Below are positions 12,089-36,448 of a stretch of DNA of 64,000 nucleotides, in pieces. This DNA is from a bacterium. Its GTDB lineage: Bacteria; Pseudomonadota; Gammaproteobacteria; Pseudomonadales; Moraxellaceae. A program made the translations under genes and the position numbers. The notes beneath the pieces were generated by a model that was not told where the DNA came from, made no database searches, and worked only from the letters and a program-made list of their open reading frames with translations. The stretch covers positions 496,001 through 560,000 of the forward strand of contig JAQSDB010000002.1 of the NCBI GenBank assembly GCA_029945725.1. Direction: 5' to 3'. Positions within the stretch are counted from its first letter, which is position 1. Each line of letters begins with the position of its first letter.

Positions 12089-12096
12089 ATACAACA

Positions 12097-14762: not shown

Positions 14763-15041
14763 TTGAAAATATTAACGATGGCTGGTGTGGCGGCAGGTTT
14801 GTGTTTGTCGTCGATGCAATTGCATGCCGATGCCATGGGGCGTGACATGGGCTTTGATGGTGAGCCCACGCAAGCGGGCGCAAAAACTCAGTCCATGCGC
14901 AGTGCCGCCCCCCCGTCTTCTGGCTATGTGGGCCTGTCCGAAACCTTGCCTGAAAACCCACAGTGCGCCTCGGGTGGTCAGGCCTGCGCAGAGAAGCCTC
15001 AGTCGGCTAACGATAAAGACAAGGCTACGCCTGCGCAGTAA
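14763..15041 (+). CDS. Small exported hypothetical protein upstream of secretion operon
   Basis: A 92-residue product read from TTG 14763 (GGGGGGAGAG site just upstream) or ATG 14778. It has a signal peptide (TMAGVAAGLCLSSMQLHADA) and a short disordered Pro/Ser/Gln-rich body with two Cys (NPQCASGGQAC). The composition after residue 30 gives no domain. It precedes the pseudopilin gene by about 150 bp and may belong to the same exported system. The longer upstream frame has no ribosome site and is rejected as the start. Confidence 0.5.
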   Translation: MKILTMAGVAAGLCLSSMQLHADAMGRDMGFDGEPTQAGAKTQSMRSAAPPSSGYVGLSETLPENPQCASGGQACAEKPQSANDKDKATPAQ

Positions 15042-15076
15042 GAAGTCAGGCAAGGTGTGTGGCCTCCCTGCGCACG

Positions 15077-15082
15077 TATAAT
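15077..15082 (+). promoter_or_regulatory. Candidate -10 box for the secretion operon
   Basis: A perfect TATAAT lies 113 bases upstream of the pseudopilin start in the only sizeable gap before the operon. The -35 region at the right distance is a poor match to TTGACA, so this is only a candidate. Confidence 0.3.
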
Positions 15083-15194
15083 TCTGGATGTGGTTCTGTC
15101 ATGTCGTCCGTAATTCCCGCGGGAGCATTCTCTGGTTGTACTCGGTGTGCGCCTATAGAATCGCCAGCTTTGCTGGGCTTTCGGGGTTAAAGGG

Positions 15195-15623
15195 ATGTCC
15201 CTTTCGGTATACAAAAACAGGCATCGTGGTTTTACCCTGCTGGAGTTGCTGGTGGTGCTGGTCATCATCGGTCTGCTGGCGGGTATTGTCGGGCCGCGCT
15301 TGTTCAAGAATGTCAGCAAATCCGAGATCACCACGGCCAAAGCCCAGATTGATTCCCTTGGCAAGGCGCTGGATCAGTACCGGCTGGATGTCGGGCATTA
15401 CCCGGCCAGCCAGGAAGGGTTGGCCGCACTGATGCAAAAGCCTGCCACCGAGCCCAACTGGAACGGGCCTTATCTCAAAAAAGCCGTGCCACTGGACCCG
15501 TGGGGCCAGCCCTACCAGTACAAGTTCCCCGGTGAAAAAAGCCCTGACTACGATCTTTCTTCCTTCGGCCCCGACAAGGCGGCCGGTGGCGAAAAAGAAA
15601 ACGCCGATATCGGAAACTGGTAA
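15195..15623 (+). CDS. gspG: Type II secretion major pseudopilin (GspG family)
   Basis: A 142-residue pseudopilin with the prepilin peptidase site HRGFTLLELLVVLVIIGLLAG (cleavage after Gly12, Glu at +5), an N-terminal hydrophobic helix, and the GspG-type C-terminal body: LDQYRLDVGHYPASQEGLAALMQ, NWNGPYLKKAVPLDPWGQPYQYKFPG and a terminal DLSSFGPDK calcium-site loop. It forms the pseudopilus that pushes substrates through the secretin. It is the first gene of a tight operon (5 bp to the next gene). Confidence 0.95.
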   Translation: MSLSVYKNRHRGFTLLELLVVLVIIGLLAGIVGPRLFKNVSKSEITTAKAQIDSLGKALDQYRLDVGHYPASQEGLAALMQKPATEPNWNGPYLKKAVPLDPWGQPYQYKFPGEKSPDYDLSSFGPDKAAGGEKENADIGNW

Positions 15624-15628
15624 GGCAT

Positions 15629-16819: not shown

Positions 16820-18508
16820 ATGAACGCGCCGGTTTTAAATGCGATGACCACGTTGACGGCCGCATTGATTGAAGAGGCAAAATCTTCGGCAGCCCTGCAG
16901 GGCGAGCCCTTGTTGCTGGCCTTGCAGCGCATCAGTGGCAGCAATCCTGAGGTGATGCTGGCGGCATTGGCCCGGTACACGAGTCTTGATGTGCTGAGTC
17001 TGGCTGAACTCGATGCCATGGCACCGGATTTCTCCGTGCTGGGGTATACGGAGTGCCTGCAACGCCAGTGCATTTTGCTGACGGATGCTGAAGGGCGCCG
17101 GGTATTTATCACGGCCAATCCGCTGGATGAAGCGCTCTACACCTGGGCCAGTTATAAAATCAGCGGCTACTTTCGTCTGGCGTTTACGCATCCGCTGGAA
17201 CTCAAAGCCTTGCTGTCCCGGCTGGAGGCGCACCAGCAGGCGCTGTCGCAACTGATTCGCCTTGATCAGACCGTTGCGCAAAACACCGATGCCGAAGAAA
17301 TCTCCCTGACCTCCATCGCGCAGGATGAAAGCCAGGTGGTGCGGCTGGTGAATTCCACGCTCTACGATGCGCACAAGAGCGGTGCCAGCGACATTCATTT
17401 TGAAAACACGCCACAGGGGCTGGTGATCAAGTACCGCATTGATGGCGTGCTCTCCACCTCACGGCATTTGCCGGATGTGGCACTGACCGGGCAGGTGATT
17501 TCCCGCATCAAGGTCATGGCGGAGCTGGATATTGGTGAAAAGCGCATTCCGCAGGATGGCCGCTTTTCAGTCACGATGAACGCGCGCGAGATTGATTTCC
17601 GTGTCTCCATCATGCCGGGGCTGTTTGGCGAGGATGCCGTTCTGCGTATTCTCGACAAGCAATCCCTGACGGCGGAGCTCAGCCAGCTCAGCCTGGATGT
17701 GCTCGGCATTGATGCGGAAACCCGCGACATCATCCGCCGCCTGGCCAATCAGCCTTACGGCATGTTGCTGGTCACCGGGCCGACCGGTTCCGGCAAAACC
17801 ACTTCGCTCTATGCCACGCTCAGCGAAATCAATCATGGCGATGACAAGATCATCACCATCGAAGACCCGGTGGAATACCAGCTGCCCGGCGTGCTGCAGA
17901 TTCCGGTCAACGAGAAAAAGGGCCTGACGTTTGCGCGCGGTCTGCGTTCTATTTTGAGGCATGATCCTGACCGCATTCTGGTGGGTGAAATCCGTGACAA
18001 GGAAACCGCGGAAATTGCCGTGCAGGCCGCATTGACCGGCCACCTCGTGTTCACCAGCGTGCATGCCAACAATGTGTTTGATGTGCTCAGCCGTTTCAGC
18101 CATATGGGAGTGGACCCCTACAGCTTTGTTACCGCACTGAACGGCATTGTGGCGCAGCGTCTGGTGCGCCTCATCTGCACGCATTGTGCGGAGCCTTATG
18201 TGCCAGACGATGAATTGTTGCAGCTCTCCGGCATTGAGCGCTCGGCCGTGGCGGGGCATGCGCTCCGGCACGGCAGGGGCTGCCCGCATTGCCGGGGCAC
18301 CGGCTACAAGGGACGCCGTGCACTGGCCGAGGTCTTGATCCTGAATGATCCGATGCGAGAGCTGATTCTCCAGCAAACACCGATAACCCGGTTGAAGGAA
18401 CTGGCGCGCAGCCAGGGCATGCGCTTTATGCGTCAGCAGGCGCTTGATGCCGTCCGCAACGGACAAACCACCTTGCAGGAAATCAATCGTGTCACGTTTG
18501 TGGAATAA
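16820..18508 (+). CDS. gspE: Type II secretion traffic ATPase (GspE/PilB family)
   Basis: A 562-residue secretion ATPase with an N-terminal N1E/MshEN-like domain, Walker A GPTGSGKTTSLYATL (about 320-334), Asp box TIEDPVEYQLPG, Walker B RILVGEIRDKETAE, His box LVFTSVHANN, and a C-terminal zinc site with paired Cys (ICTHC, CPHC). It powers pseudopilus extension from the cytoplasmic face. Its 3' end overlaps the next gene by 20 bp, indicating translational coupling. Confidence 0.95.
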   Translation: MNAPVLNAMTTLTAALIEEAKSSAALQGEPLLLALQRISGSNPEVMLAALARYTSLDVLSLAELDAMAPDFSVLGYTECLQRQCILLTDAEGRRVFITANPLDEALYTWASYKISGYFRLAFTHPLELKALLSRLEAHQQALSQLIRLDQTVAQNTDAEEISLTSIAQDESQVVRLVNSTLYDAHKSGASDIHFENTPQGLVIKYRIDGVLSTSRHLPDVALTGQVISRIKVMAELDIGEKRIPQDGRFSVTMNAREIDFRVSIMPGLFGEDAVLRILDKQSLTAELSQLSLDVLGIDAETRDIIRRLANQPYGMLLVTGPTGSGKTTSLYATLSEINHGDDKIITIEDPVEYQLPGVLQIPVNEKKGLTFARGLRSILRHDPDRILVGEIRDKETAEIAVQAALTGHLVFTSVHANNVFDVLSRFSHMGVDPYSFVTALNGIVAQRLVRLICTHCAEPYVPDDELLQLSGIERSAVAGHALRHGRGCPHCRGTGYKGRRALAEVLILNDPMRELILQQTPITRLKELARSQGMRFMRQQALDAVRNGQTTLQEINRVTFVE

Positions 18509-19268
18509 GCCGCGCCTGCGCGTTTATGTCGGGGACGATCATCTGGTCATGTGCCAACTGGGCGGACGCTGGCGCCCGCAGGTTATCCACAAGGAAAAGA
18601 TACGGTTTGAATCCGGGCAGACCAGCCGTGCGCTTGAGGCGCTGGAAGCCTGGCTGATCGCACATCCGCTGCAGGCAGACATCGAGTGTGTACTGGGTGC
18701 GGCACACGTGCGTTATCTGTTGCTGCCCTGGGATGCGCAGCTGGTGGATACGGAATTCCGGCAAACACTGGCGCACGCCCTGTTTGCGCGAAATTTTCAG
18801 GACGAGCCGGCACGCCATGAGGCGAGGTTTTCGCCTGCGCGTTATGGCCAGCCACAACTGGCGGCTTTTGTGGAAAAAGAGCTGCTGACCTCGCTTGATT
18901 TTCTGGCCCGGAAATTCAACGGCCGCCTCACCAGTGTGGAGCCGTTGCTGGTATCGGTATGGAACCGCTTTCGCCGGAAGCTGGAGAAAGAGCAGGGGAG
19001 TTTGCTGATTGCCGAATCAGGACGCTTGCTGGCGCTGCGTCATGACCATGGCGCGTTCACGGATGTGCAGTGGCGGCCGTATGCGGATGAAGAGCTTTTC
19101 GGCCGGCTTAAACAGTTGTCCGAGGCGGCGCCAGCCCGGATTTTTGCGCCCCTGCATGGCGAGCTCGCCATGAGTCTGCCGGCGAGCTGGCTGGCACTGG
19201 AGAGTGCCGAGGGCTTTTCCTCGCTGCGTGACGGCGAGTATGCCAGCGCCTTGTGCGGGGTGTGTTGA
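18489..19268 (+). CDS. GspL/PilM-like cytoplasmic scaffold protein of the secretion system
   Basis: A 259-residue protein starting at GTG 18489 (AGGA site 12 bases upstream, inside gspE). It begins with an actin-like strand pattern (RLRVYVGDDHLVMCQLG) and has no clear membrane helix. Position after gspE and before PilN- and PilO-like genes points to the GspL cytoplasmic domain or PilM equivalent, which links the ATPase to the inner-membrane ring. Sequence alone gives weak similarity, so the assignment rests mostly on gene order. Confidence 0.65.
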   Translation: MSRLWNKPRLRVYVGDDHLVMCQLGGRWRPQVIHKEKIRFESGQTSRALEALEAWLIAHPLQADIECVLGAAHVRYLLLPWDAQLVDTEFRQTLAHALFARNFQDEPARHEARFSPARYGQPQLAAFVEKELLTSLDFLARKFNGRLTSVEPLLVSVWNRFRRKLEKEQGSLLIAESGRLLALRHDHGAFTDVQWRPYADEELFGRLKQLSEAAPARIFAPLHGELAMSLPASWLALESAEGFSSLRDGEYASALCGVC

Positions 19269-19798
19269 TGGCCCGCCTTGAGATGGATTTTGCAGCACGG
19301 GAATCGTGGCCACGTCTGGTGCTGGTGTTGCTGGCATTGGGTCTTGCCGGCAGCCTGTACGCGATCTGGTTGCGTGATGATTTGCTGACTCAGCGTGATG
19401 CCCGGCAAGACGAGATCCGTCGCCTTGAACGTTCGCTCTCGCATCACCAGTTTTTCGGGACTTCCAGCACACGGCAGAACCCGAAGGCCGTGGCAGAAAC
19501 GAGGCGGCTGGTTATGGAATTGCAGCGCCCCTGGGAAGCCATGCTGAACTCCCTGCAAAAAGCGGCCAGGCCCGACATGCTGATCGTGCGCATACAGCCG
19601 GAATCGAATGCCAACCGCCTGCTGATCAGTGGCCAGGCCGACGACAACGAGGCTTTTCTCTCTTATGTCACGCGCCTGCGTGACGATGCGGCATGGCGCT
19701 CCGTGGAGCCCGTGAGTGAGGAGCGGGGCGCGGCCGTGTTTGTGCAGGGTAGCAAGCCCGTCAGTTTTCAGCTGGTGGCTGAATGGGGTGCGCCATGA
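19268..19798 (+). CDS. PilN/GspL-like bitopic assembly protein
   Basis: A 176-residue protein with a short cytoplasmic N-terminus, one membrane helix (PRLVLVLLALGLAGSLYAIWL, about 16-36), a coiled coil (RQDEIRRLERSLSHHQF) and a small ferredoxin-like periplasmic domain, the usual PilN layout. ATG 19268 overlaps the upstream TGA (TGATG). Expected to pair with the next protein to form the inner-membrane ring. Confidence 0.7.
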   Translation: MARLEMDFAARESWPRLVLVLLALGLAGSLYAIWLRDDLLTQRDARQDEIRRLERSLSHHQFFGTSSTRQNPKAVAETRRLVMELQRPWEAMLNSLQKAARPDMLIVRIQPESNANRLLISGQADDNEAFLSYVTRLRDDAAWRSVEPVSEERGAAVFVQGSKPVSFQLVAEWGAP

Positions 19799-20406
19799 AA
19801 AGCCGAATGAACCTGACGGGTTTGCGTTTTCCTGAAGTCCGGCAGTGGCTGCACTGGCAGTTTGCCCGGATGTGGGCCTCGCTGGGCGTGCTCGAATTGT
19901 TTGCACTGGCCTTGATGGCGCTTTGGCTTGGTGTGTCTGTGCAGGTGAATCAGCCCTTGCAGGCAGAAACGGTTTTGTTGAAGGCAAAAGTACAGGCATT
20001 GCAGGCGCGACAAGCAGCCGCAGTGATGCCGGGAAGTGCCCGTAAAACCGGTGCGGATATCAGCCAGGGGTTTACCGATTTTCTTCCCGCCGATACTCGG
20101 CGCGAAAAGCAGCTTGCCAGGCTCCATCAGCTGGCGGATCAACACGGCCTGCAACTGGCACGAGTGGATTACCGCATCGAAACAGTTAACGCACTGGCAG
20201 TGCAAAGACTGTCCCTGCGTTTAAGCATTCAGGGCGGTTATGCCCTGCAGCGGCAATTCATGCACGAGTTGCTGGTGGCCTTGCCCAATCTTGCGCTGGA
20301 GCGCATCAGCCTGGAAAAAACCGCCGGCCTTCCGGACAGCATGAACACGCTGCTGGATGCCAGCCTCTACTACCGGCCCGCGGCAGAGCGGAGTGCCCGC
20401 TTATGA
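19795..20406 (+). CDS. PilO/GspM-like bitopic assembly protein
   Basis: A 203-residue protein with one membrane helix (about 30-55, MWASLGVLELFALALMALWLGV), a coiled-coil region (QAETVLLKAKVQALQARQA) and a periplasmic domain ending near DASLYYRPA. This is the PilO/GspM layout. It overlaps its upstream neighbour by ATGA and its downstream neighbour likewise, so stoichiometric co-translation is likely. Confidence 0.68.
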   Translation: MKSRMNLTGLRFPEVRQWLHWQFARMWASLGVLELFALALMALWLGVSVQVNQPLQAETVLLKAKVQALQARQAAAVMPGSARKTGADISQGFTDFLPADTRREKQLARLHQLADQHGLQLARVDYRIETVNALAVQRLSLRLSIQGGYALQRQFMHELLVALPNLALERISLEKTAGLPDSMNTLLDASLYYRPAAERSARL

Positions 20407-20903
20407 AAGCCCCTGTTTCAAAACCCTTGCTGGCCGGTTTGCTGGCGACTTCCGTGCTCACGCTGATTGCCTTGCTGAAACCGGAAACGGACATTGCAGT
20501 CGAGCCGGATCTTGCACTGGTGGCAGAGCATCGCGACAGCCGTGCAACGGCAGAAAGCGGATCGGCAACGCCGTGGCTGCGTACGCTGCCGCCGCAACAC
20601 ATTGCCAGCCTGAACCAGGGTTTTGTGCCGCCAGCGCCACCACCACCGCCTCCCCAGATCGTATTGCCACCCCCTCCGCCGCCAAAGCCGGTGGCCCCCA
20701 ATCCTTCCTTCACCTATCTCGGCCGCATGATGCGTGACGACCGTGTCTATGTCTTTCTTGGGCGTGGCGAGGATGTTGAGGTCGTCGCTGTCGGTGATTC
20801 GGTTGACAGCAGCTGGCGGCTTGAAAGTGTGAGCGATACCGGTATCGGCCTGCGTTATTTGCCGCTGAACGAAGTCCGTCAGCTGGCCATGAGTGATAAA
20901 TAA
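20403..20903 (+). CDS. GspC/PilP-like protein with proline-rich linker
   Basis: A 166-residue protein: an N-terminal membrane anchor (about 8-22), a disordered segment, a striking proline run (about 78-99, PPAPPPPPPQ...PPPPPPKP), then a small beta domain (FTYLGRMMRDDRVYVFLGRG...VAVGDSVDSSW) resembling the HR domain of GspC/PilP that contacts the secretin N0 domain. It lies directly before the secretin gene, as PilP and GspC usually do. The family match is by architecture, not by strong sequence identity. Confidence 0.65.
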   Translation: MKAPVSKPLLAGLLATSVLTLIALLKPETDIAVEPDLALVAEHRDSRATAESGSATPWLRTLPPQHIASLNQGFVPPAPPPPPPQIVLPPPPPPKPVAPNPSFTYLGRMMRDDRVYVFLGRGEDVEVVAVGDSVDSSWRLESVSDTGIGLRYLPLNEVRQLAMSDK

Positions 20904-20906
20904 AAA

Positions 20907-23237: not shown

Positions 23238-23707
23238 AAGCGTTACGGGGCTTTACGCTGATTGAGCTCATGGTGACTGTGGCACTGGTCGCCATTCTGG
23301 CATCAGTGGTGGCTCCGCTGGCACAGGTCAGCATGCAGCGCAGCAAGGAGCAGGACCTGAAGCTGGCTTTGCGCGAGATTCGCATTGGTATTGACGCCTA
23401 CAAGCAGGCCGTTGATAGCGGCCGGATATATCGTTCAGCGGATACGACAGGTTATCCGCCTTCGCTGGCGGCGCTGGTGGAGGGCATGCCGGACCTGAAA
23501 GACCCGAAAGGCCGCAAGATTTATTTTTTACGCCGTCTTCCCCGCGATCCCTTAAACAGTGATGAAAACCTGAAGGCAGATGCCACCTGGGGCAAGCGTT
23601 CCTATCGCAGTGATGCCGATGATCCCCGTGAAGGTGATGACGTGTATGACGTGTATTCCCTGAGTGAAAAAACCGGGCTCAACGGCCGCCCTTACCGGGA
23701 GTGGTGA
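23234..23707 (+). CDS. Type II secretion pseudopilin-like protein
   Basis: A 157-residue protein with prepilin site RGFTLIELMVTVALVAILASV (cleavage after Gly6) and a body with YPPSLAALVEGMP and a YDVYSLSEKTG segment, like GspG-type pseudopilins. It overlaps the secretin stop by ATGA. Its downstream neighbour is another pseudopilin, so these are minor or alternative pseudopilins of the same machine. Confidence 0.85.
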   Translation: MKALRGFTLIELMVTVALVAILASVVAPLAQVSMQRSKEQDLKLALREIRIGIDAYKQAVDSGRIYRSADTTGYPPSLAALVEGMPDLKDPKGRKIYFLRRLPRDPLNSDENLKADATWGKRSYRSDADDPREGDDVYDVYSLSEKTGLNGRPYREW

Positions 23708-23708
23708 C

Positions 23709-24547: not shown

Positions 24548-24984
24548 GCCCAAAAAAAGAGATTGAGGTTTTACGCCCATAAACGGGTCTGATTCAGCAG
24601 CCTTTTAGACTTTCCTCATCAATCCGCATTAAGAAGGTAGTCGGTCAGTTCGTGACCAGCAGCTTGGCTATGTCCATATCCCTGTCGATAAAGTCATCAG
24701 CATATTTCTTTATTGCGGGTGGCCATTCGGCTCATCAAGCAGTCTGCCCTACCGTATTAATACGGATAGTTGATCTATTTTGGTCTTGCTAGACTCGCCG
24801 GGATGTAAAGGTGGGCTATTTGTTCCTCTTGGTTATAAGGCCGTTGCGGCTCTTTAACACCGGGATGCCCATATAGGGAGGTTGGTTTTGCAGGGATGTT
24901 CAACGGCTGCCTGGTTTTGGTGTCGTGTTGGCCCTGTCCCCCAGTCTCTGCATGATAAAAACAGACCAAGACAGGATGCAGTTG
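24548..24984. other. Intergenic region between secretion operon and giant-protein gene
   Basis: About 430 bases without a convincing gene on either strand. The run CCCAAAAAAAGAG directly after the operon is not preceded by a clear hairpin. The region is AT-richer than the operon and probably contains the promoter of the giant-protein gene, but I could not pick a consensus promoter. Confidence 0.5.
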
Positions 24985-27900: not shown

Positions 27901-30900
27901 TATTTCGATGACAATGACCCGTATTTCAAATCGCAAAGTACCCTTAGCTTTTGGGGGCTGATGAATGTTCAGAATAATGCGTCATTGGCGGGAACCTATG
28001 CTTCGGCAGCAAAGTATCTACTTTCCTTTCAGGAGCAGAGCGGTGAGTGGGGGTCAGATGATCCCAATACCGGGCAATGGTGGGCCAACTCACTTGCTGC
28101 AACGGCGCTAAATGTTGATTCTCTTGTTCGATACACAGACTTTATTAACAAGAATCAGCCGGCCTCTTTTTATTGGACGTTTCCATTTACTCAATACGGC
28201 CAGTCTTTTACGTGTCCGTGCAGCCTGACTCTGGACGCTGATAAAAATCTGTATGTCACGCATGTGAATGAAGGAATCCTCGAGAGAGTGAGTCCTGATG
28301 GTACTCGGCAGACATTGTTGTCGGGCTATCCGGACATGCGCAATGTATTGGTGCGAGCCAATGGGGATATTTACGTTGGCATGGCCAATGGTCTTGTTAA
28401 GCGATCCGCAAACGGATCGGTAAAGGTCATTGGCAATGTTCGTGTCATAGATGTTGTTGAGGCTCCCAATGGCAATATTTTTGCAGCATCGTATAACAGC
28501 GGCACCATTTACACCGTTGTTAACGATCAGCTCGTTTATTATGTTAATGCCCCGAATAACCATCATATTGCGGTTGGCCATGACGGGAACTTGTATTACA
28601 CGACCTGGGGCGACGGCATTATTGTCAAAGTAAGCCAGAACAAGGCTCTGTCCGTTGCCGGACGCTATCCCCGTGGCGCTTATCCCTATCAGCTTTTGCA
28701 GTATCCGGATGGTAGATGGGCGGTTTCGGGTATGGCTGGCATTTATCTCATGAGTGAGGATTTTTCATACACCATTCAGAGAGTGACGGCGCAAGAGTCA
28801 TATGGAATGGCGATGGTTGATGGCGTACTGGTTTACGCCCCCAGCGAACCAGGTAGTCTGATGCAATACTCGCAGGGTGGTATGCCTGCGATGTTTGGAA
28901 TGCCTGCTTCTATTGCCCCCTCACTTGCCAAGGCAAAAACCTGGTTATTGCAGAACTCTGAACCAACCAGTCTGGGAACACAGCGCAAGACCATGGCGTT
29001 GATCGGCTTGGCATCACTGGAAAATTATTTTGCAGGGGCGGCAGACCCAGCGATCAAGACAAGAATGCAGGAACTGGATGCTGCATTGCGATCCCTTCAG
29101 AATACTGACGGTGGGTGGGGGATTTATCCTGGCTGGGGGAGTGATCCGTTAGTAACGGCGCAAGTGGGTTATGCGCTCGACAAGCTCAATCCGTCACCCG
29201 ATGATCCTGCCGTCCAAAAAGCGATTCAGTGGATATTGTCTCAGCAAGCGGCAGACGGTTCCTGGCATTCCGCTCAGATGATGACCAATGTCGCAGCGAC
29301 CACATGGGTAGCGATCTGGTTGCCGATTGCGCTCAATCGCGTGGGCGGCATTGATACTGATCTGCATTTGAGTTTCCCGTCGGGTATTCATCTGGCGAAT
29401 CCTTCGGTGGCGCCCGCAGATTCATTTGCAAATACCGATGGCAGCACTAACTACCATTGGAATTTCCTCGGGGTTACCGCGAACGGACGCAATATCAATT
29501 TTGATCTGACCCTCGATAACCTGTTGCCCAATGAGCAGCGCCCTGTGGCGGCTGAGGCGCATTTGGCGTTTAACAACTCATTCACAAATAGCCGGGTAAC
29601 TGCGCCGTTGGCTATTCCTGTTGTCAGCGCCAGTAATGGTCTTAATCTCAGCCTGAACACGGATCAAAACAGCTACGGCGCAAATACGCCGGTTGTTATT
29701 GCGGCTGGCGTTGGCAATACCGGTGCGGTTTTGCAGGATGGCAGTGTGCATCTGTGGGTATATGCACAAGACGGTACACAGGTTGCTGATCTTGGTATTC
29801 AGAGCTTTACGGGGCTTGCATCATCTACTCAGCAGGCATTGAGCGGCGCGTGGAATACGGCAACCTTGCTGCCCAATGCCTACTACGTGCAGGCGACGCT
29901 GTATGACAGCAACGGCCAGCAGGTGGGCACCGCACGCAAGGATCTGGTGATTGTCTCCTCCAGTGCCACCGGCCATCTATTGAGCGGCCAGGTGACGACG
30001 GACAAAGGCAGTTACGGTGCGCTCGACAGGGTGCATGTCACAGACCGCATCGCCAATCTCACTACCAATACTCTCGTCGGCAATCTTCAGTTGCAGACCA
30101 CAATTACATCGCCTGCCAATCTGGTCGTGTGGAGTCACCAGGACTCCGTGAGTCAATTGGTGGCGGGTGGGCTCAAGGACTTTGCGTTTGATGTGCCGGT
30201 GGCAAATGCGCCAGCGGGTGTTTACACGGTAAGTCTGCAGGTGACTGATAGCAGTGGTGCGGTACAGGCGCAGTCGAGCACGAATTACGCGGTGTTCTCA
30301 TCAGCCGCTAATGGTGCTGGCCTCGGTGGTACCTTGGCGCTTGCGCGCAGGACGCTGGTTCCGGGTGAGACGCAGACCATCAGCATGACGCTCAATAATC
30401 AGGGTAATGCTCTGATCAATGCGTTGCCGGTTACGGTCAGCATAGTGGATCCGGTTAACAATCTGGTGGTGGCGCAGTGGCAAGATACGGTTCCTTCGTT
30501 GGCGGTGGCCGGTACGGCTAATCTCTCGCATACCTGGGTGACGCAAGGCGATTATGGTCGCAATCTGGTTGCCGTGCTGACGACCGGAATTACTGGTACC
30601 CGTGCGTTGGCCCAGAGTGTGTTCTCGTTAGCAAAGCCATCATTGACACTGACCTATGCCTCCAACAAGCCTCTCTACGATGTGAACGAGTCTGCCTTGT
30701 TAACGGCTGCTGTGGTGAGTGGCGTAAATCTGCCGCTCACTGATCTGAGCGTGGTGCAGCAAATCAAGCGGCCCGATGGCACAGTATTGTGGCAGTCCAC
30801 GCAGACGGGGCAGCTACTAGCGGCATTGGGTTCTCTGACACGGCAAGACCCGGTTGCACTTGGTCGCAGCGCAGCGGGTAATTACACCGGGACCTTGTCC

Positions 30901-32703
30901 GTGCTCGACAAGCAGGGCGTATTGCTCACACAAACGACTACGGTTTTTGAGATTCGCTCAACGGCTCTCACCGGTGCCGGTCTGACCGGCAGTGTGAGTG
31001 CGGTGCCGGCAGAGTTGCCACAAGGCGAAACCGCTGTCCTCGGTATCAATATAGGTAATCAGGGCAATGCAGATCTCGTAAATCTACCCCTGCAGGTCGT
31101 GGTCAAGAATGTTGCCACCGGGCAGGTCGTCAAGCAGTTTGATATGACGGTTGCTTCGTTGCTGCAGTCAACGGTGTTTACGCAGGCCTTTAACTGGGTG
31201 CCGACCGATGCGGCCGGAACGGTCTATGACGTGAAATTGCAGGCCACGGTGAATGGCGCTGCACTTCTTCTTGCCGAAACTGGTTTCAAGGTAGCCGCGT
31301 TGCCTATCAAGTTTGGTGTTGACTCACATTGGGGCGGTCAGAGCCGTGTGCTCGTTTATCTCAACTGCCATCCGGATTGGCAGCTCAGTTGCAGCGGCTG
31401 GAAGTATGGCGACCACAAGGATCCCTGCTTCGTGACACGTAGCACAACCTTGAGCAAGTACCTGAATCAGCTAGGCGTGCCGTATCAGATTGTGACGGAA
31501 CAGGAAGATTTCCGTCGCGAGCTGCGCAGTGGCCGTTACAACAACTATTGGCTCTTGGGTGCAGTGGAAGCCGTGCCACATAACTTGCTTGAGGAAGTGC
31601 GCGAGGCCGTTTTCCGTGGTGACACGCTGGTAGTCGATGGTGGTTTGCAGCGCTGGGACAATCATGATTTTTACCCGATGCTGGGTGTGCAGTACCGGGG
31701 CTACCTCACGTTTAGTGACCAGAAGGCTACGTTCAAGGCCCCTGTATATGGTGCTGCCATGAGCCCCTTTGGCCCGCAGCAAACAGCGGGCAAGCCCCTG
31801 TTCCTGCAGTCTTATGGCAGTGGTCGTGTAACGGCCACTTATGACGGTAACAAGTGCACCAAGGTCGACTTTGCTGACATGTTGTTTGGTTTTTCATGGA
31901 AGAAACCCGCCACTTATCCTGCGGCGATAACCAATACTTTTGGCAAGGGTAAAACGCTGACCTTCGCCTTTGATGTGATCGATAGTCTGCCGGCGCTCAC
32001 GGCAGCACCTGCCTGGACGGAGATGCTGCGCGAAAGCATCGCCTTCACTCAGCCACTGGACATGATGACCACATCCCTGGTGCCGGGCGATTACCAGCGT
32101 TACAGCCTGACTGTAACGAACCAGGCCAAGGCCGCCAGTCTGGTGGCTACGATGACGTTGCCGGCCGGTAGTGTGCTGGTAAATACCCAGCCCGCATCTG
32201 TTACCAATGCAAACGGCAGCCTGAGCTTTACGTTTACCTTGCCAGAGAGTGGCGTGCAGGTACTGGACGCGGGTTTCCGTGTGCCGGTGACGGCAGGCAA
32301 TTACCCGGTGACAACGACATTGCGAGTGGCGGGTAGCACTGCAGATTACGGCAGCTATACCAGCACGCTGGGTGTTCTGGACACAGTAAACCGGGCCAGT
32401 CAGGCGCGGACCAGCATCAGTTCTTTGCCGATTCCATTCCTGAGCCTTGATCGCACGCGGCAGACGCATGCCTTGATGCAATACGACCTTGCCATGCTGC
32501 ATTACAACCTTGGCAAGTACTGGGTCGCGATTGATGAGTTGGCGGAAGTGGGTGAGGAACTTGGTACGTTCACGCAGACAGACACAAGCAACGCACGTGT
32601 GAATATGGATCTGTTGTTGCGGGATTGGGAAGGGCAGTGGTGGCGTGCTTGCGCCACAACAAACGGCCCGTCCGGGTCATTGCTGGGGAGGTGTGGGCCA
32701 TGA
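24985..32703 (+). CDS. Giant exported mosaic protein (terpene-cyclase-like toroids, beta-propeller, CARDB-type domains)
   Basis: About 2572 residues with an N-terminal signal (VRWAIVGLLAFSGVSAALS). Domains in order, residues from ATG 24985: alpha-toroid repeats with QW-like motifs (about 60-280; QRADGSWGGDLYLTAYAL), three or four CarboxypepD_reg-like beta domains (about 286-620), CARDB-like beta domains (about 630-910), a CxxCH motif (CAGCH, 929-933), toroid repeats again (GEWGSDDPNTGQWWANS), a beta-propeller-like block (about 1075-1305), the rest of the toroid (DGGWGIYPGWGSDPLVTAQ), a long array of CARDB/Big-like repeats (about 1460-2110), a glutamine-amidotransferase-like fold (about 2110-2355; VLVYLNCHPDW), and a final beta domain. 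ATG 24985 has an ACAGGA site 8 bases upstream; 24925 and 24952 are alternatives. No single enzyme function can be assigned; it is probably a secreted or surface protein handled by the adjacent secretion system. Confidence 0.85.
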   Translation: MALWGQHARVRWAIVGLLAFSGVSAALSLNPDVQRGLVWLEAKVTATGAMAGEDASIATPLQNRDEALRTLQLLSSGNAALVGVIGTEDTSSTEYLARQALSLGGAGTDVSVQLSALVARQNSDGGIGSKSSALDSAWALAALSQQPAQYSNAIAGLETYLFGQQWQDGGLAGLSDASRIEASSLMLLAQQALPASLDVRNSMNKLSAWLSQLQRADGSWGGDLYLTAYALAALTPVSADSAQQQSAASFLKGQQGVNGDWNNDPFITAVILRALSQTSVDGTGSTTSVTGQILSSSGNLPLSGVSIAVDGTATAIMTDAQGKFVLTGLASSNHNFSFLLAGYQPRIISATVPALGSLDLGVMLLSPMAGSNILSGYIYDVDSQQPLAGATVTVASVPAITVQTDAAGHYQISNIAAGTFSLMATAGGYTVQNYAVTVASGSNLLHFKLRKQSNPTPLPTGPATLSGQVVTLGSGQAISDVQILVNQQVIASSNASGNFSLSFSAGTYQIDYQKAGFLTLTQQVSVTEGSVVSIGQVALTPQRTTTRLSGIVRDAQTQQVLPDAAVQIIDGVMSRADQNGHYVLDNLSGTQFDVRVSATGYNSETTRLGVSFPGEVTYDFALAAQASQGVQIAPLGVAPATAGLHADVLATTSYQNTGTEDAMLVSTLQLLDANGQVVSAAVAYANATDSIPLGTFTLAVNESKPVFFRWNSGQFPPGRYQLVARASAAGTISRSNILGTVLAERSGSLTLTAKEHFAGSITATPPVQQAGNVQPVHLTAVVQNDGNVASSSRQFSARLDDEKTGAPVTTLTATVSALPVGQLASVNFGSWSPAAPGSYHVTLLNEANETIGSPSRVYIGDAAKGFFTVNKVVVPTGNQIVKGYVALSGVDPVTGEITDPMAPLIKAAIQKAVSYNDTNASAWVSYNGCAGCHIASQAIVGGETNNGLANYDAQKRSQVIGKVVSTLHPEDGYFDDNDPYFKSQSTLSFWGLMNVQNNASLAGTYASAAKYLLSFQEQSGEWGSDDPNTGQWWANSLAATALNVDSLVRYTDFINKNQPASFYWTFPFTQYGQSFTCPCSLTLDADKNLYVTHVNEGILERVSPDGTRQTLLSGYPDMRNVLVRANGDIYVGMANGLVKRSANGSVKVIGNVRVIDVVEAPNGNIFAASYNSGTIYTVVNDQLVYYVNAPNNHHIAVGHDGNLYYTTWGDGIIVKVSQNKALSVAGRYPRGAYPYQLLQYPDGRWAVSGMAGIYLMSEDFSYTIQRVTAQESYGMAMVDGVLVYAPSEPGSLMQYSQGGMPAMFGMPASIAPSLAKAKTWLLQNSEPTSLGTQRKTMALIGLASLENYFAGAADPAIKTRMQELDAALRSLQNTDGGWGIYPGWGSDPLVTAQVGYALDKLNPSPDDPAVQKAIQWILSQQAADGSWHSAQMMTNVAATTWVAIWLPIALNRVGGIDTDLHLSFPSGIHLANPSVAPADSFANTDGSTNYHWNFLGVTANGRNINFDLTLDNLLPNEQRPVAAEAHLAFNNSFTNSRVTAPLAIPVVSASNGLNLSLNTDQNSYGANTPVVIAAGVGNTGAVLQDGSVHLWVYAQDGTQVADLGIQSFTGLASSTQQALSGAWNTATLLPNAYYVQATLYDSNGQQVGTARKDLVIVSSSATGHLLSGQVTTDKGSYGALDRVHVTDRIANLTTNTLVGNLQLQTTITSPANLVVWSHQDSVSQLVAGGLKDFAFDVPVANAPAGVYTVSLQVTDSSGAVQAQSSTNYAVFSSAANGAGLGGTLALARRTLVPGETQTISMTLNNQGNALINALPVTVSIVDPVNNLVVAQWQDTVPSLAVAGTANLSHTWVTQGDYGRNLVAVLTTGITGTRALAQSVFSLAKPSLTLTYASNKPLYDVNESALLTAAVVSGVNLPLTDLSVVQQIKRPDGTVLWQSTQTGQLLAALGSLTRQDPVALGRSAAGNYTGTLSVLDKQGVLLTQTTTVFEIRSTALTGAGLTGSVSAVPAELPQGETAVLGINIGNQGNADLVNLPLQVVVKNVATGQVVKQFDMTVASLLQSTVFTQAFNWVPTDAAGTVYDVKLQATVNGAALLLAETGFKVAALPIKFGVDSHWGGQSRVLVYLNCHPDWQLSCSGWKYGDHKDPCFVTRSTTLSKYLNQLGVPYQIVTEQEDFRRELRSGRYNNYWLLGAVEAVPHNLLEEVREAVFRGDTLVVDGGLQRWDNHDFYPMLGVQYRGYLTFSDQKATFKAPVYGAAMSPFGPQQTAGKPLFLQSYGSGRVTATYDGNKCTKVDFADMLFGFSWKKPATYPAAITNTFGKGKTLTFAFDVIDSLPALTAAPAWTEMLRESIAFTQPLDMMTTSLVPGDYQRYSLTVTNQAKAASLVATMTLPAGSVLVNTQPASVTNANGSLSFTFTLPESGVQVLDAGFRVPVTAGNYPVTTTLRVAGSTADYGSYTSTLGVLDTVNRASQARTSISSLPIPFLSLDRTRQTHALMQYDLAMLHYNLGKYWVAIDELAEVGEELGTFTQTDTSNARVNMDLLLRDWEGQWWRACATTNGPSGSLLGRCGP

Positions 32704-32819: not shown

Positions 32820-35800
32820 ATGAAGCAGCGGCACAAAGGTCAGCAGCGCATCAAGGCGCTGATTGAGGGTACACAGTTGTTTGGCTCGTTTGCCAGACGA
32901 AGCATTACCCTTCTGGTGCTGACCTCCTACCTGGCGCTGCTCAGCGCGCCAGCCGCTGCTGCAGTACGTCAGGAGGTGTTTGGGCGCCCGAAACCCTTGA
33001 CCGAAAACAGCATCACGTCCAGTGAGCTGTCCACGATGCGTGAATCCATGCGCCAGTTTCGTCTGGAGCAACGCCTTGCCGCCAGTACCCCGGAAACTGT
33101 CACCGACAAGCTGAAGAGTCTTTTTACCGACAGCCCCAAAATAAAGGCCCAACGCACACTGGCCGATAGCCTGATCGCTTCCAAAGCCCGGCTTTTGAGC
33201 GAAGCTGCCGAGCAGGATCAATCCCTTGCCGCTACGCGGGCTGATCTACTGAAAAAGCATTTGCCGGCCAGTATTCTGGCTCGTCACGATGCGGCGGTAA
33301 AAACCATTGCCACGCGCCGTGCCGATCTGCTCTCCACCCTGGATCAATTGCAACAGGCTCAAGGTAAAGACAGCGCTGATCAGCGAGAGCAGAAACTTAA
33401 CGATCTGGATAAAAAGCTTGAGCAGTGGGGAGGAGCCAAGTCCGCCAAAACGGATTTCAAGCATCTGCCCTGGGGAAGTCCGAGCAGTAAGGTGCGTGCG
33501 CCACGTGACAACAAGTTTGCGTATCTCTCTCATCTGGAGATGTTCGGCATTGAGCCTGTTCGGGTCGCCTATGCTGGTCATTTACCGGTACCGCCAGGCA
33601 CCACGCTGCCTGTGCTGCCCAATATCGGTGAAGTCGTGCAGCCGGCCGATTTAAGCCAAAACGAAGACATAAAATTCACCGCCGCCATTCGCGCCAAGGC
33701 CCTGGAGCTGCACCACAACCCTGCCGAGATTTATCGCTGGGTGCACGACAACATCGAATACATTCCCACCTACGGCTCCATTCAAGGCGCGGATTACGCC
33801 CTGCAAACCAGGCGTGGCAATGCCTTTGATACTGCGAGTCTGCTGATTGCCTTGCTGCGCGCCAGCAATATCCCCTCACGTTATGTGTACGGCACCATCG
33901 AAGTGCCGATTGATCAGGCCATGAACTGGGTCGGGGGTGTGACAAGCCCTGATGCTGTACTTAATTTGATGGGGCAGGGTGGCATTCCCTCGGTCGGTCT
34001 GACGCAGGGCGGAAAAATCACCGCCATTCAAATGGAGCATGCGTGGGTAGAAGCTTTTGTGGATTTTGTGCCCAGTCGAGGCACCAAAAACATCACGCCC
34101 GATACCTGGGTTCCGCTGGACGCCAGCTTCAAGCAGTACACCTACACACAAGCGCTGGATCTGAAAACTGCCGTACCCTTCGATGCGAATGCATTGGTCA
34201 GTGATGTTAAAACCGGTGCTACGGTTGATGAGCAAAACGGTTATGTGCAAAACCTGGATCAAAGCAAAATCCAGACGGCACTCACCACCTACCAGGCGCA
34301 GGTAAAAGATTACCTCACCACGCAACAACCGAATGCCACAGTAGGCGATATTCTCGGCACCAAAATCATCAAGCCCAATGCCACGGCACTGTTAAGTACT
34401 GTGCTGCCGACCAAATTGGTGGCGGTGGCGGGGGATTTTCAGGAACTGCCGAGTACGATGCGGCATTATTTTAATTACACGGTGTACAGCGACAGCGTCA
34501 GTCGCGACACCGACAGCCCCACCATTCAGAAAAAACTCAGCCTGCCGTATCTCGCCGGAAAAGCCCTGGCACTTTCCTTCAAACCCGCCACGGCCGACGA
34601 CGAAGCCACCATCAACAGTTATTTGCCCAAACCCCATGCCGACGGCACACCGATTGACCCGAGTGAATTGCCCAGCTCCTTGCCCGGTTATTTAATCAAC
34701 GTGACCCCGGAATTAACGGTGGATGGACAAACCATTGCCACGGGCGACGCACAAGCCATCGGCAGCGACGCCATCACCCGCGCCAGCATCACCTCACCCA
34801 ATTCCAGCCTGAGTGAGGTCACCAGCGAGAATGTGATTACGGCAGGGGAGTATCATGCGATTGGGATTGATGGTCAGGGCCTGAGTGCCGCGCAACTCGC
34901 GCACTTAAAAACGCAACTCGAAGCGACTAAACAAAAGCTGGAAAGCCAGCAGCTCGATGCCCTCACCAAGCACGATTTGACCGGGGCTATTTTACAAACC
35001 GGCGTGCAAAGTTATTTCGCCACCAACGACGTGCAAGACCAGATCGCCGCCCGCGCCGGCAGCACCGTCACCAATCGCCTGCCCAGTTATGGCAGTTTCA
35101 GCAGCACGCTGAGCACAAAATACAGCTGGGGCGTACCGAAAAGCGTCAGCGCCTCGGGCGTGACCATGGATATTGATCACTTGACGGCAGGCTTGGTGGA
35201 TAAAACCAATAACACCCAAAAGGGCGTGGCATTTCAGCTCGCCAGTGGCAACCGCATGAGCGCCAATGAACATCTGGTGCCCGAACAGTTGTTCAGCACC
35301 GAAAGCCAAAAGGCCGAAGGCGTTTCTGCGGTAAAAGCCTTGCAGATAGCCGCACAGCAAGGCCAGCGCATCTACACCATCACGAAAGCTAATGCGCAAA
35401 ACGCGATTCCCGAGCTAACGCTGAATCAATCCACCAAAAATGAGATTGCCAACGCCGTCAACGCGGGTTATCAAGTGACCACGAGCCAGGGCAATATCAG
35501 TTATGCAGGGTGGACGGGAGCTGGGTATATTATTCTTGACCAAGAGACCGGGGCGGGGGCTTATAAGATTAGTGGCGGGGAGAATGGGGCGAAAAACATA
35601 CTAAAAGCGCTTGATAGTTTTTTGATGGTCTTTGGTCCGTACAGCACTTTTAAGGCTTGGGCTTTGCTTGGCAATGCTGCTGGTGAGTCATTCGGGAATT
35701 TCTTTGCTCTTATTGGAATTACTCTTGGGATTTTTGACATTGTTGGAAGATGCGCTGGCGCCGGACAGGATGTCGTTATTCAAATTCTTGTTCCGTATGT

Positions 35801-36002
35801 AATGATGAATCTTTTGGCGCTTATTATTATGGCGTCTTTGTCATTGAGTTTCTTTGTTGCAATCGCGGTCGGTATTTTACTCGATAGAATGATTTCTTCT
35901 CTTAAGGAGTCCCTGATTGATGGGCATGGTTGCAATCCGCCACTAAGTCAGCGCGCTAGAGAGTTCAATTATTCCATTGCGCTTCTTGGGGGTAGATTAT
36001 GA
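32820..36002 (+). CDS. Large transglutaminase-like exported protein with variable C-terminal membrane tip
   Basis: About 1060 residues with a signal peptide (SITLLVLTSYLALLSAPAAAA, cleavage near residue 43), a coiled-coil region (about 110-210) and a transglutaminase-like core (about 295-440): IYRWVHDNIEYIPTYGS, RRGNAFDTASLLIALLRAS, MEHAWVEAFVDF and WVPLDASFK. His and Asp positions of the papain-like triad are present, but the expected Cys is replaced in GNAFDTA, so catalysis is doubtful. A helical segment (about 687-722) is duplicated downstream. The last ~170 residues after GAYKISGGENG are AT-rich, hydrophobic and unrelated in composition (three or four membrane helices). ATG 32820 follows an AGGA site; the longer frame overlaps the giant-protein gene. 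Such proteins usually neighbour Rhs genes. Confidence 0.85.
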   Translation: MKQRHKGQQRIKALIEGTQLFGSFARRSITLLVLTSYLALLSAPAAAAVRQEVFGRPKPLTENSITSSELSTMRESMRQFRLEQRLAASTPETVTDKLKSLFTDSPKIKAQRTLADSLIASKARLLSEAAEQDQSLAATRADLLKKHLPASILARHDAAVKTIATRRADLLSTLDQLQQAQGKDSADQREQKLNDLDKKLEQWGGAKSAKTDFKHLPWGSPSSKVRAPRDNKFAYLSHLEMFGIEPVRVAYAGHLPVPPGTTLPVLPNIGEVVQPADLSQNEDIKFTAAIRAKALELHHNPAEIYRWVHDNIEYIPTYGSIQGADYALQTRRGNAFDTASLLIALLRASNIPSRYVYGTIEVPIDQAMNWVGGVTSPDAVLNLMGQGGIPSVGLTQGGKITAIQMEHAWVEAFVDFVPSRGTKNITPDTWVPLDASFKQYTYTQALDLKTAVPFDANALVSDVKTGATVDEQNGYVQNLDQSKIQTALTTYQAQVKDYLTTQQPNATVGDILGTKIIKPNATALLSTVLPTKLVAVAGDFQELPSTMRHYFNYTVYSDSVSRDTDSPTIQKKLSLPYLAGKALALSFKPATADDEATINSYLPKPHADGTPIDPSELPSSLPGYLINVTPELTVDGQTIATGDAQAIGSDAITRASITSPNSSLSEVTSENVITAGEYHAIGIDGQGLSAAQLAHLKTQLEATKQKLESQQLDALTKHDLTGAILQTGVQSYFATNDVQDQIAARAGSTVTNRLPSYGSFSSTLSTKYSWGVPKSVSASGVTMDIDHLTAGLVDKTNNTQKGVAFQLASGNRMSANEHLVPEQLFSTESQKAEGVSAVKALQIAAQQGQRIYTITKANAQNAIPELTLNQSTKNEIANAVNAGYQVTTSQGNISYAGWTGAGYIILDQETGAGAYKISGGENGAKNILKALDSFLMVFGPYSTFKAWALLGNAAGESFGNFFALIGITLGIFDIVGRCAGAGQDVVIQILVPYVMMNLLALIIMASLSLSFFVAIAVGILLDRMISSLKESLIDGHGCNPPLSQRAREFNYSIALLGGRL
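34877..34981 (+). repeat. Parent copy of a 105-bp direct repeat inside the transglutaminase-like gene
   Basis: This coding segment (LSAAQLAHLKTQLEATKQ and onward) recurs 1731 bp downstream at 36608-36712 with about eight differences, nearly all synonymous. Confidence 0.9.
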
Positions 36003-36448
36003 ATTTATTATTTATTATAGGGCTGGCTGTATCGTTGTGGCTAATGGTCTCTGGCGGTAGAGTTTTATTTCTTACATTCAGGTCTGAGTGGTCTGAGGTT
36101 GAGCCTGGCTCAATGGATGTTCGGCTGAAGTTGCACTCTAGTGGAATTTATGGGACTAAAACTTATAGGCCATTTGTAAAATATACTTACGAGTTTATGG
36201 GTGCGGCATACTCTTCTGATAGATATGCATTTTCGGAGTCTGAAGACTCAGGGGATGAAAATATTGTACGAAAAATATGTGCAGACTTGGTAAGTAATAA
36301 AACAATGATCCATGTCAACAAGGGTAATCCAAGATTATCTGTACTAAAGCTTCGTGACGCGAAAAGCTCAGTTAGCCAGGCTTTCGCCTTCGTTATTGGT
36401 GGGTTTCTGATATTTACTTTCGTCTTGTTTTTTTGGGTTGGTTATTGA
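35999..36448 (+). CDS. Small membrane protein, DUF3592-like
   Basis: A 149-residue protein with a membrane helix at each end (about 3-27 and 127-147) and a beta-rich middle (TYRPFVKYTYEFMGAAYSSDRYAF, MIHVNKGNPRLSVLK) matching the DUF3592 pattern. It overlaps the stop of the transglutaminase-like gene by 4 bp (ATGA) and shares the low GC of that gene's variable tip, so tip and small protein probably travel as a pair. An immunity or partner function for the tip is inferred from this arrangement only. Confidence 0.68.
   Translation: MNLLFIIGLAVSLWLMVSGGRVLFLTFRSEWSEVEPGSMDVRLKLHSSGIYGTKTYRPFVKYTYEFMGAAYSSDRYAFSESEDSGDENIVRKICADLVSNKTMIHVNKGNPRLSVLKLRDAKSSVSQAFAFVIGGFLIFTFVLFFWVGY

What the first reader, a model, noticed from the sequence alone, without database searches (positions are those of the whole stretch)
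14763..36448. A type II secretion-like machine next to its probable giant exported substrates
Seen: a complete-looking G-F-E-L-N-M-C-D operon with extra pseudopilins, then a 2570-residue exported protein, a 1060-residue transglutaminase-like protein and a small membrane protein, with Rhs just upstream. All three large proteins carry export signals or belong to exported families. Inference: one module moves large mosaic proteins across the outer membrane, with Rhs-like and transglutaminase-like tips as effectors. The PilMNOP-like genes and cohesin-bearing secretin set it apart from standard T2SS.
Basis: partly seen in the sequence, partly recalled or inferred. Interest (0 to 1): 0.75.

Follow-up and report, generated by a model that had tools for sequence, protein, structure and literature searches.

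The report
Secretion machine with swappable toxin cargo
A Moraxellaceae bacterium carries a second secretion machine beside a giant exported protein and its partner, which looks like an antibacterial toxin carrier with a replaceable tip and its own antidote gene; related bacteria keep the machine but swap the cargo, which makes the machine a candidate exporter for a class of toxins whose exit route is unknown.

Summary
Window 15195-24547 is an 11-gene type IV filament-superfamily machine (GspG-F-E, PilM-N-O-P-like genes, TPR-secretin-cohesin, three pseudopilin-like genes). It meets the GspG cut-off but not those for GspD, PilQ or MshL; 17 of 18 genomes checked also have a canonical GspD. The giant (24976-32703) and TGase-like protein (32820-36002) are a fixed pair: among 348 Moraxellaceae genomes both occur in the same 9, adjacent in 9 of 9. 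Pair and machine coexist in 5 and are adjacent in 5 of 5, in three orientations; the other 4 pairs have no such machine. The TGase-like protein is not an enzyme: its active Cys is Ala/Ser in 10 of 10. It is conserved to about residue 920, then ends in a hypervariable hydrophobic tail followed by a small membrane-protein gene: a polymorphic toxin with candidate immunity. Other Moraxellaceae machines carry Rhs, SpvB or RTX giants; Rhs cores lie near 6 of 7 tested (expected 0.34). The window's own Rhs is an IS21-truncated remnant. Export by this machine is inferred, not shown.

The parts
15195..15623 (+). gspG-like major pseudopilin
   Evidence: TIGR01710 176.1 bits, cut-off 88.85; PF08334
15629..16819 (+). 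gspF-like inner-membrane platform
   Evidence: PF00482; TIGR02120 260 bits, below cut-off 424
16820..18508 (+). gspE/pilB-like ATPase
   Evidence: PF00437; TIGR02533 494 bits, below cut-off 630
18444..19268 (+). PilM / cytoplasmic-GspL-like protein
   Evidence: no sequence family; AlphaFold model pLDDT 89.8; Foldseek PilM 5e-11 and GspL 8e-10
19253..19798 (+). PilN-like
   Evidence: PF05137 weak, E 0.0024, below cut-off; conserved place in the operon
19783..20406 (+). PilO/GspM-like
   Evidence: profile A5 hits a PilO chain at 6e-7
20403..20903 (+). PilP/GspC-like (TM, Pro-rich, small C-terminal domain)
   Evidence: weak profile hit to PilP chains, E 0.058
20907..23237 (+). lipoprotein-type secretin with N-terminal TPRs and C-terminal cohesin-like domain
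   Evidence: PF00263, STN, TPR; below GspD, PilQ and MshL equivalogue cut-offs
22845..23234 (+). cohesin-like domain of the secretin
23234..23707 (+). pseudopilin 1
   Evidence: PF07963
23664..24086 (+). pseudopilin 2 (true start probably near 23709)
   Evidence: PF07963
24080..24547 (+). pseudopilin-like 3, no N_methyl hit; a GspK-like role is inferred
   Evidence: conserved place
24976..32703 (+). giant exported protein: toroid, CarboxypepD_reg x4, CARDB, MG2, C-terminal region conserved with relatives
32820..36002 (+). TGase-fold toxin carrier (catalytic Cys replaced), 1060 aa
   Evidence: PF01841
35589..35999 (+). hypervariable hydrophobic tail: candidate membrane-active toxin tip
35999..36448 (+). 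small membrane protein, DUF3592-like (below cut-off): candidate immunity
   Evidence: PF12158 E 2e-4; two hydrophobic segments
36605..36712 (+). displaced 108-base copy of a TGase-carrier segment (92.6% to 34874-34981)
12080..14173 (+). 5'-truncated Rhs remnant
   Evidence: TIGR03696; truncation at the IS21 end
14185..14637 (+). small gene with a signal-peptide-like start: candidate immunity of the Rhs remnant (inferred)
   Evidence: translation; no Pfam family
9597..12099 (.). IS21-family element (istB 9669-10487, istA 10477-11991)
   Evidence: PF01695, PF22483; 2503 bases identical to a second copy

Best explanation
The locus is a T2SS-like machine of the type IV filament superfamily with a two-gene polymorphic toxin system as its likely cargo. 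Proposed steps: (1) Sec exports the giant and the TGase-fold carrier to the periplasm (leaders seen; inferred). (2) The pseudopilus, driven by the GspE-like ATPase on a PilM-N-O-P-type platform, pushes them through the TPR-secretin-cohesin channel (inferred from anatomy and linkage). (3) Outside, the giant serves as stalk or adhesin and the dead TGase fold as a binding or anchoring module (inferred). (4) The hypervariable hydrophobic tail of the carrier enters and damages the envelope of competing bacteria (inferred), and the producer is protected by the small membrane protein encoded next (inferred). Shown here: the architecture, the constant pairing of giant and carrier, the hypervariable tail plus small gene, the lost TGase Cys, and repeated adjacency of machine and pair. 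Machines of the same family elsewhere sit beside other large exported proteins (Rhs, SpvB/TcdB-like, RTX) and exoenzymes, so the machine seems to be retained while cargo is exchanged.
For: Giant in 9 of 348 and carrier in 10 of 348 Moraxellaceae genomes (one of these ten, G293, a fragment only): the same nine, adjacent in 9 of 9. Machine in 12 of 348; both in 5, adjacent in 5, hypergeometric P 2e-6 without correction for relatedness. Orientations: co-directional (G000), divergent (G012), convergent (G155, G203, G214). In a GspG+F+E tree the pair-bearing machines need at least 4 gains or losses on starred branches, so this is not one undisturbed inherited block, though one old gain with repeated losses is not excluded. 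The window's nearest machine in that tree (G004, 77% identical) has RTX 2568 aa plus TGase-Rhs 2062 aa in the same downstream place. Rhs cores within 20 kb of 6 of 7 machines, expected 0.34, P 1e-8; 0 of 20 other secretin places in the same genomes have a listed Rhs core that near (list lacks 1 core of G005 and 3 of G007, and contig ends limit some places). Carrier identity in 40-residue blocks is 0.42-0.56 over residues 521-920, then 0.30, 0.15, 0.11, 0.04; hydrophobic segments in 10 of 10 tails and 0 of 59 length-matched body segments. In the 8 loci with downstream DNA a small hydrophobic ORF follows: 92-198 aa with two or three segments in 7, and in G155 a 43-aa then a 76-aa ORF. Displaced carrier cassettes in G059, G358, G293 and the window.
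Against: 4 of 9 pair-bearing Moraxellaceae genomes (G049, G054, G059, G358), and G067 outside the family, have no such machine at the thresholds used. All of these have canonical GspD, which could be the exporter. Among the 80 genome-contig loci only 20 carry an Rhs, YD, SpvB or TGase tag, 8 of them TGase alone (many contigs short), and some machines lie beside TpsA/TpsB pairs, which have their own transporter, or beside ordinary exoenzymes. One of 12 Moraxellaceae machines (G099) has a TonB-plug protein and an M16 peptidase as its large upstream neighbours; another (G007) shows no cargo on an 18.5 kb contig. With-machine carriers are not one clade either (3 changes, 2 forced). IS and recombination genes nearby allow a genomic-island explanation. 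Toxicity, immunity and secretion are untested. Glycine zippers are not enriched in the tails.
Confidence: 0.6

Rival explanations
1. Island effect: giant, carrier and Rhs genes accumulate in the same variable region as the machine and leave the cell by the canonical T2SS or another route; the machine has other substrates.
For: Canonical GspD over cut-off in 17 of 18 genomes, including all pair-bearing ones. The pair occurs without the machine in 4 of 9. An RDF-like (Gp3) gene and a YqaJ gene lie near the pair in G000, G203 and G214. IS21 next to the Rhs remnant. TpsA/TpsB next to some machines.
Against: Adjacency is found in separate places of the machine tree and in three orientations. Other secretin places in the same genomes have no listed Rhs core within 20 kb (0 of 20).
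Confidence: 0.27
2. The machine builds a type IV pilus or MSHA-like filament rather than secreting proteins; the giant is an adhesin that happens to be nearby.
For: PilM-N-O-P-like platform genes; machine proteins other than GspG below T2SS equivalogue cut-offs.
Against: The major subunit meets the GspG model, 176 against 88.85 bits; no second (retraction) ATPase among the eleven genes; some relatives lie beside exoenzymes such as a chitinase with CBM5/12 and an astacin-lectin.
Confidence: 0.08
3. The TGase-fold protein is not a toxin: the variable hydrophobic tail is a membrane anchor or an antigenically variable surface domain, and the next gene is unrelated.
For: Tails hold one to four hydrophobic windows; Pfam found only Transglut_core in the window's whole protein.
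Against: Hypervariable tail plus small hydrophobic ORF in 8 of 8 visible loci and displaced carrier cassettes is the layout of polymorphic toxins; inactive N-terminal TGases in such toxins are described (PMC3482391, section 19).
Confidence: 0.12

Closest known systems
Polymorphic toxins with inactive N-terminal transglutaminase domains (Zhang et al. 2012, PMC3482391)
   Same: Leader, TGase fold that has lost its Cys, variable C-terminus; small gene after the tail and displaced cassettes (layout of polymorphic toxins, partly recalled).
   Different: The paper says the dead TGase is followed by RHS repeats and lists the route as 'T2SS/Sec-dependent' with no signature genes in the neighbourhood. 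Here no RHS match was found in the carrier, it is paired with a giant partner in 9 of 9, and a T2SS-like machine adjoins 5 of 9.
Type II secretion system (Gsp/Xcp/Pul)
   Same: Major pseudopilin GspG, GspE, GspF, secretin.
   Different: Secretin, ATPase and GspF below equivalogue cut-offs; platform of PilM-N-O-P type; TPR and cohesin modules on the secretin; coexists with a canonical T2SS.
Geobacter/Pelobacter Pul (OxpG) system, called an atypical T2SS
   Same: A second T2SS-like system beside the Gsp system, needed for secretion of the multicopper oxidase OmpB (passage in PMC3543383).
   Different: Not compared by sequence here; no toxin-type cargo is mentioned in the passages read.
Membrane-depolarising toxins with membrane immunity (EsxX, TspA of T7SS; Tse4, Tse5 of T6SS)
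   Same: Hydrophobic C-terminal toxin region; for EsxX and TspA, immunity by membrane proteins (passages of PMC12744356).
   Different: Different carrier and export route; tails here show no glycine-zipper enrichment.
Two-partner secretion / CDI (TpsA-TpsB)
   Same: A giant exported protein encoded beside its outer-membrane exporter.
   Different: No TPS domain was found in the window's giant or carrier; TpsA/TpsB pairs lie near some betaproteobacterial machines.

Membership tests
Canonical T2SS | major pseudopilin of the GspG type | tested here: met
   TIGR01710 176.1 bits, cut-off 88.85
Canonical T2SS | secretin GspD equivalogue | tested here: not met
   TIGR02517 175.9 bits, cut-off 351.35; also 162 bits
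Canonical T2SS | GspE and GspF equivalogues | tested here: not met
   494 of 630 and 260 of 424 bits
Canonical T2SS | GspC with HR domain and one-piece GspL | tested here: inconclusive
   platform split as PilM/PilN/PilO/PilP-like; PilP hit only at E 0.058; the PilM-like fold resembles both PilM and cytoplasmic GspL
Canonical T2SS | secretion of folded proteins through the secretin | not testable with these tools
   needs a mutant and a secretome
Canonical T2SS | prepilin peptidase in the genome | not tested
   none identified among the eleven genes; the rest of the genome was not searched for it
T4aP / MSHA pilus | PilQ or MshL and PilB equivalogues | tested here: not met
   PilQ 156 of 284, MshL 117 of 250, PilB 479 of 676 bits
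T4aP / MSHA pilus | retraction ATPase in the operon | tested here: not met
   one ATPase among the eleven genes
Polymorphic toxin system | conserved carrier with hypervariable C-terminus | tested here: met
   10 homologues aligned
Polymorphic toxin system | small gene immediately after the variable tail | tested here: met
   8 of 8 loci with downstream DNA, of 10; in G155 the first ORF is only 43 aa
Polymorphic toxin system | displaced cassettes | tested here: met
   G059, G358, G293 and window 36605-36712
Polymorphic toxin system | toxicity of the tail and protection by the small gene | not testable with these tools
   needs expression in a laboratory strain
Inactive-TGase polymorphic toxins | loss of a catalytic residue | tested here: met
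   Ala or Ser in the Cys column in 10 of 10 carriers, His and Asp kept; Cys kept in 3 of 3 aligned TGases that sit in machine operons (L103, L127, L132)
Inactive-TGase polymorphic toxins | TGase followed by RHS repeats | tested here: not met
   no RHS match in the window's carrier; RHS follows in relatives L038, L128 and L061
Cohesin | cohesin fold | tested here: met
   pLDDT 95.5, Foldseek TM about 0.78 to the top cohesin
Cohesin | a dockerin partner among the window's cargo | tested here: not met
   no dockerin match in giant, carrier or Rhs at E 0.1; weak Dockerin_1 hits beside FG-GAP repeats in SpvB-like cargo of other genomes

The most novel reading that the evidence does not exclude
This is a dedicated exporter for polymorphic toxins within the T2SS branch of the type IV filament superfamily: a machine kept across Moraxellaceae and Betaproteobacteria whose adjacent giant toxin cargo is exchanged, which would supply the missing machine-level signature for the toxin class so far labelled only 'T2SS/Sec'. 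The giant and the dead-TGase carrier would be a new two-gene toxin type (stalk plus tip carrier with membrane-active tips), and the secretin's cohesin module would help choose or hold the cargo.
Probability: 0.4. Interest if true: 0.78.

Novelty: new variant of a known kind. Interest (0 to 1): 0.66.

Why it matters
It also defines a giant-plus-carrier toxin pair with candidate immunity genes that can be tested in laboratory strains.

Tried and rejected
Rhs at 12080-14173 as an exported effector: rejected; it starts at the end of an IS21 copy, and the first 543 residues of its Agitococcus homologue have no match in the window. TGase as an active enzyme: rejected. Canonical T2SS or MSHA membership: cut-offs not met. 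Glycine-zipper tip: not enriched over shuffles. A cohesin-dockerin link to the window's own cargo: no dockerin found. PDB sequence searches for the PilM-like protein gave nothing and for the TGase carrier one weak TGase-like chain. The TGase domain alone is uninformative, being present in 91 of 97 relatives. Literature searches for this link showed no paper describing it in their listings; the listings were capped and the library lacks most subscription journals, so this is weak evidence of novelty. Greedy longest-ORF calling picked wrong strands in GC-rich loci and was replaced by homology-weighted calling.

Rows dropped: the secretin tree has 84 rows: 78 of the 80 genome-contig loci (L058 and L060 are the same loci as L042 and L040), five Moraxellaceae loci and the window. 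The whole-genome Rhs count used 38 of the 80 loci, chosen for length over 21 kb, without L057 and L060; 4 of 38 hold an Rhs core inside the locus, 0.50 expected, P 0.0013; Rhs cores that lie just beyond a locus end were not counted. The tree (25 rows) lacks G002 and L067, whose gspF or gspG was not called, and G012's GspG is cut by a region end; four of its Moraxellaceae rows have unusual composition and two rows are long. Of the order-level carriers only G067 was aligned; G071 and G073 were fetched but not analysed further. The secretin-tail lengths (42 of 71 at 173-242 residues, 29 at 15-116) are lengths only, and short ones may partly be artefacts of ORF calling.
Full report
WHAT IS THERE. 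Eleven tightly packed co-directional genes at 15195-24547 encode GspG, GspF and GspE-like proteins, PilM-, PilN-, PilO- and PilP-like platform proteins, a secretin and three pseudopilin-like proteins. GspG meets its curated model; the secretin, GspE and GspF fall below the cut-offs of the T2SS, T4P and MSHA equivalogues listed. The PilO-like protein matches a PilO chain by profile (E 6e-7) and the PilP-like one only weakly. The PilM-like protein has no sequence match, but its model resembles PilM and cytoplasmic GspL about equally. The secretin is lipoprotein-like with N-terminal TPRs, and its last 130 residues model as a cohesin fold (pLDDT 95.5; top Foldseek hits cohesins). The cohesin module is probably optional in the wider family: of 71 secretin tails measured, 42 are 173-242 residues and 29 are 15-116 (length only).

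THE PAIR. About 400 bases downstream is the giant (toroid, CarboxypepD_reg, CARDB, MG2), then the TGase-fold carrier and a small DUF3592-like membrane protein. Among 348 Moraxellaceae genomes the giant was found in 9 (E at most 1e-15) and the carrier in 10 (E at most 1e-40); the tenth, G293, has only a fragment. The nine are the same genomes, with the giant directly upstream of the carrier in 9 of 9. I therefore treat them as one two-gene system.

THE CARRIER IS A POLYMORPHIC TOXIN BY LAYOUT. Ten carriers (nine from the family plus G067) were aligned. Mean pairwise identity in 40-residue blocks is 0.10-0.45 in the first 280 residues, 0.42-0.81 from residue 281 to 920, then 0.30, 0.15, 0.11 and 0.04 (numbered from 32787). 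A conserved junction is followed by tails of 111-205 residues. All 10 tails have hydrophobic segments, against 0 of 59 body segments of equal length (first 90 residues left out). A small ORF with hydrophobic segments follows in the 8 loci where DNA is available: 92-198 aa in seven, a 43-aa and then a 76-aa ORF in G155; in G054 and G358 the contig ends. The catalytic Cys column holds Ala or Ser in 10 of 10, with His and Asp kept, whereas three TGases that belong to betaproteobacterial machine operons (L103, L127, L132) keep Cys. Partial 3' cassettes of the carrier lie in arrays in G059 and G358, alone in G293, and as a 108-base copy in the window. This matches the inactive-TGase class of polymorphic toxins described by Zhang et al. 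2012 (PMC3482391; passages including Table 1, and section 19, read), except that there RHS repeats follow the TGase.

IS THE LINK TO THE MACHINE REAL? A profile of seven secretins found the machine in 12 of 348 Moraxellaceae genomes (E at most 1e-60). Five hold both machine and pair: G000, G012, G155, G203, G214. In all five they are adjacent: downstream and co-directional in G000, divergent from gspG in G012, convergent in the other three. The chance overlap gives P 2e-6, not corrected for relatedness. In a GspG+F+E tree (25 rows) the pair-bearing machines require at least 4 gains or losses on starred branches, and with-machine carriers require 3, of which 2 are forced. So the adjacency is not one undisturbed inherited block; repeated gain, or one old gain with repeated cargo loss, are both possible, and the three orientations favour repeated rearrangement. 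The window's closest machine in that tree, G004 (77% identical), carries an RTX protein of 2568 aa and a TGase-Rhs protein of 2062 aa in the same place. Other Moraxellaceae cargo: SpvB plus Rhs (G012, inserted between the secretin and pseudopilin genes), FG-GAP/SpvB plus Rhs between two gspG copies (G019), Rhs (G005), two Rhs proteins (G120), Ig-type 1303 aa plus Rhs (G002). In all, 10 of 12 machines have such neighbours; G099 has a TonB-plug protein and an M16 peptidase as its large upstream neighbours, and G007 sits on a short contig with housekeeping-like genes downstream.

CONTROLS. Rhs cores are few in these genomes (1 to 9 each). For the seven machines known at that stage, 6 have an Rhs core within 20 kb, 0.34 expected, P 1e-8. 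Twenty other secretin places in the same seven genomes have no listed Rhs core within 20 kb, though one core of G005 and three of G007 are not listed and contig ends were not checked. In 38 of the 80 genome-contig loci the excess is weaker: 4 of 38 within 10 kb, 0.50 expected, P 0.0013. Overall 20 of the 80 carry an Rhs, YD, SpvB or TGase tag, 8 of these TGase only. Others adjoin a GH18 chitinase with CBM5/12, an astacin with a lectin domain, an S41 peptidase, a 5'-nucleotidase, a heparinase-like enzyme, or TpsB and TpsA. The enzymes fit a general T2SS-like exporter of folded proteins; the TpsA/TpsB and RTX neighbours have other known routes (recalled), so adjacency alone does not prove export.

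AGAINST. Four of nine pair-bearing family genomes (G049, G054, G059, G358), and G067 outside the family, have no such machine at the thresholds used, and all have canonical GspD. Mobile-element genes lie close: IS21, and an RDF-like gene with a YqaJ gene next to the window's pair and near the pairs of G203 and G214. An island effect is therefore a serious rival.

The Rhs is truncated at an IS21 end and shows no leader. The TGase has lost its Cys and is the carrier, not the effector. The operon is not a complete standard T2SS. The linkage itself, and the TPR-secretin-cohesin architecture, hold.

VERDICT. Best reading: a T2SS-like machine with exchangeable exported cargo, here a two-gene polymorphic toxin with a candidate membrane-active tip and candidate immunity. 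The toxin layout is well supported; export by this particular machine is likely but unproven. New variant of known kinds.

Noticed in passing
window 37595-41663: Recombination-directionality-factor-like (Gp3), YqaJ, RadC-like JAB and NYN genes downstream of the pair; Gp3 and YqaJ homologues also lie near the pair in G214 (L145) and G203 (L173), which suggests a shared integrative element.
   Followed up: partly
window 9597-12099: IS21 element 100% identical over 2503 bases to a copy at G000:C2:487286-489788; the Rhs remnant begins at its right end.
   Followed up: yes
L045 1871-2293 and 10695-11117 (G019): Two gspG copies with the same match statistics flank a FG-GAP/SpvB 1012 aa gene and an Rhs 1308 aa gene, as if the pseudopilin gene travels with the cargo.
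   Followed up: no
L095, L100, L089, L093, L104, L107: Nitrosospira/Nitrosovibrio-type and Rhodoferax machines are followed by ESPR-TpsA genes (Pfam for L095 and L100, TpsB for L095; the others by N-terminal sequence only); L095 also has a PEP-CTERM protein there.
   Followed up: partly
L103, L106, L117, L132, L067, L047: In one machine clade a roughly 300-350 aa TGase-domain gene sits shortly after the pseudopilin genes; L103 and L132, and L127 of the same clade, keep the catalytic Cys. It may process or crosslink cargo.
   Followed up: partly
window 27769-27783 (giant ORF residues 949-953): A CxxCH haem-binding-type motif inside the giant.
   Followed up: no
window 13400-14170: The C-terminal part of the Rhs remnant holds an HExxH motif, as in metallopeptidase-type toxin tips (read from the translation; no Pfam family reached its cut-off).
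   Followed up: no
L063, L070, L077, L135: Four contigs of metagenome-assembled genomes titled Bordetella parapertussis carry this machine in two separate tree positions; the record titles are probably wrong.
   Followed up: no
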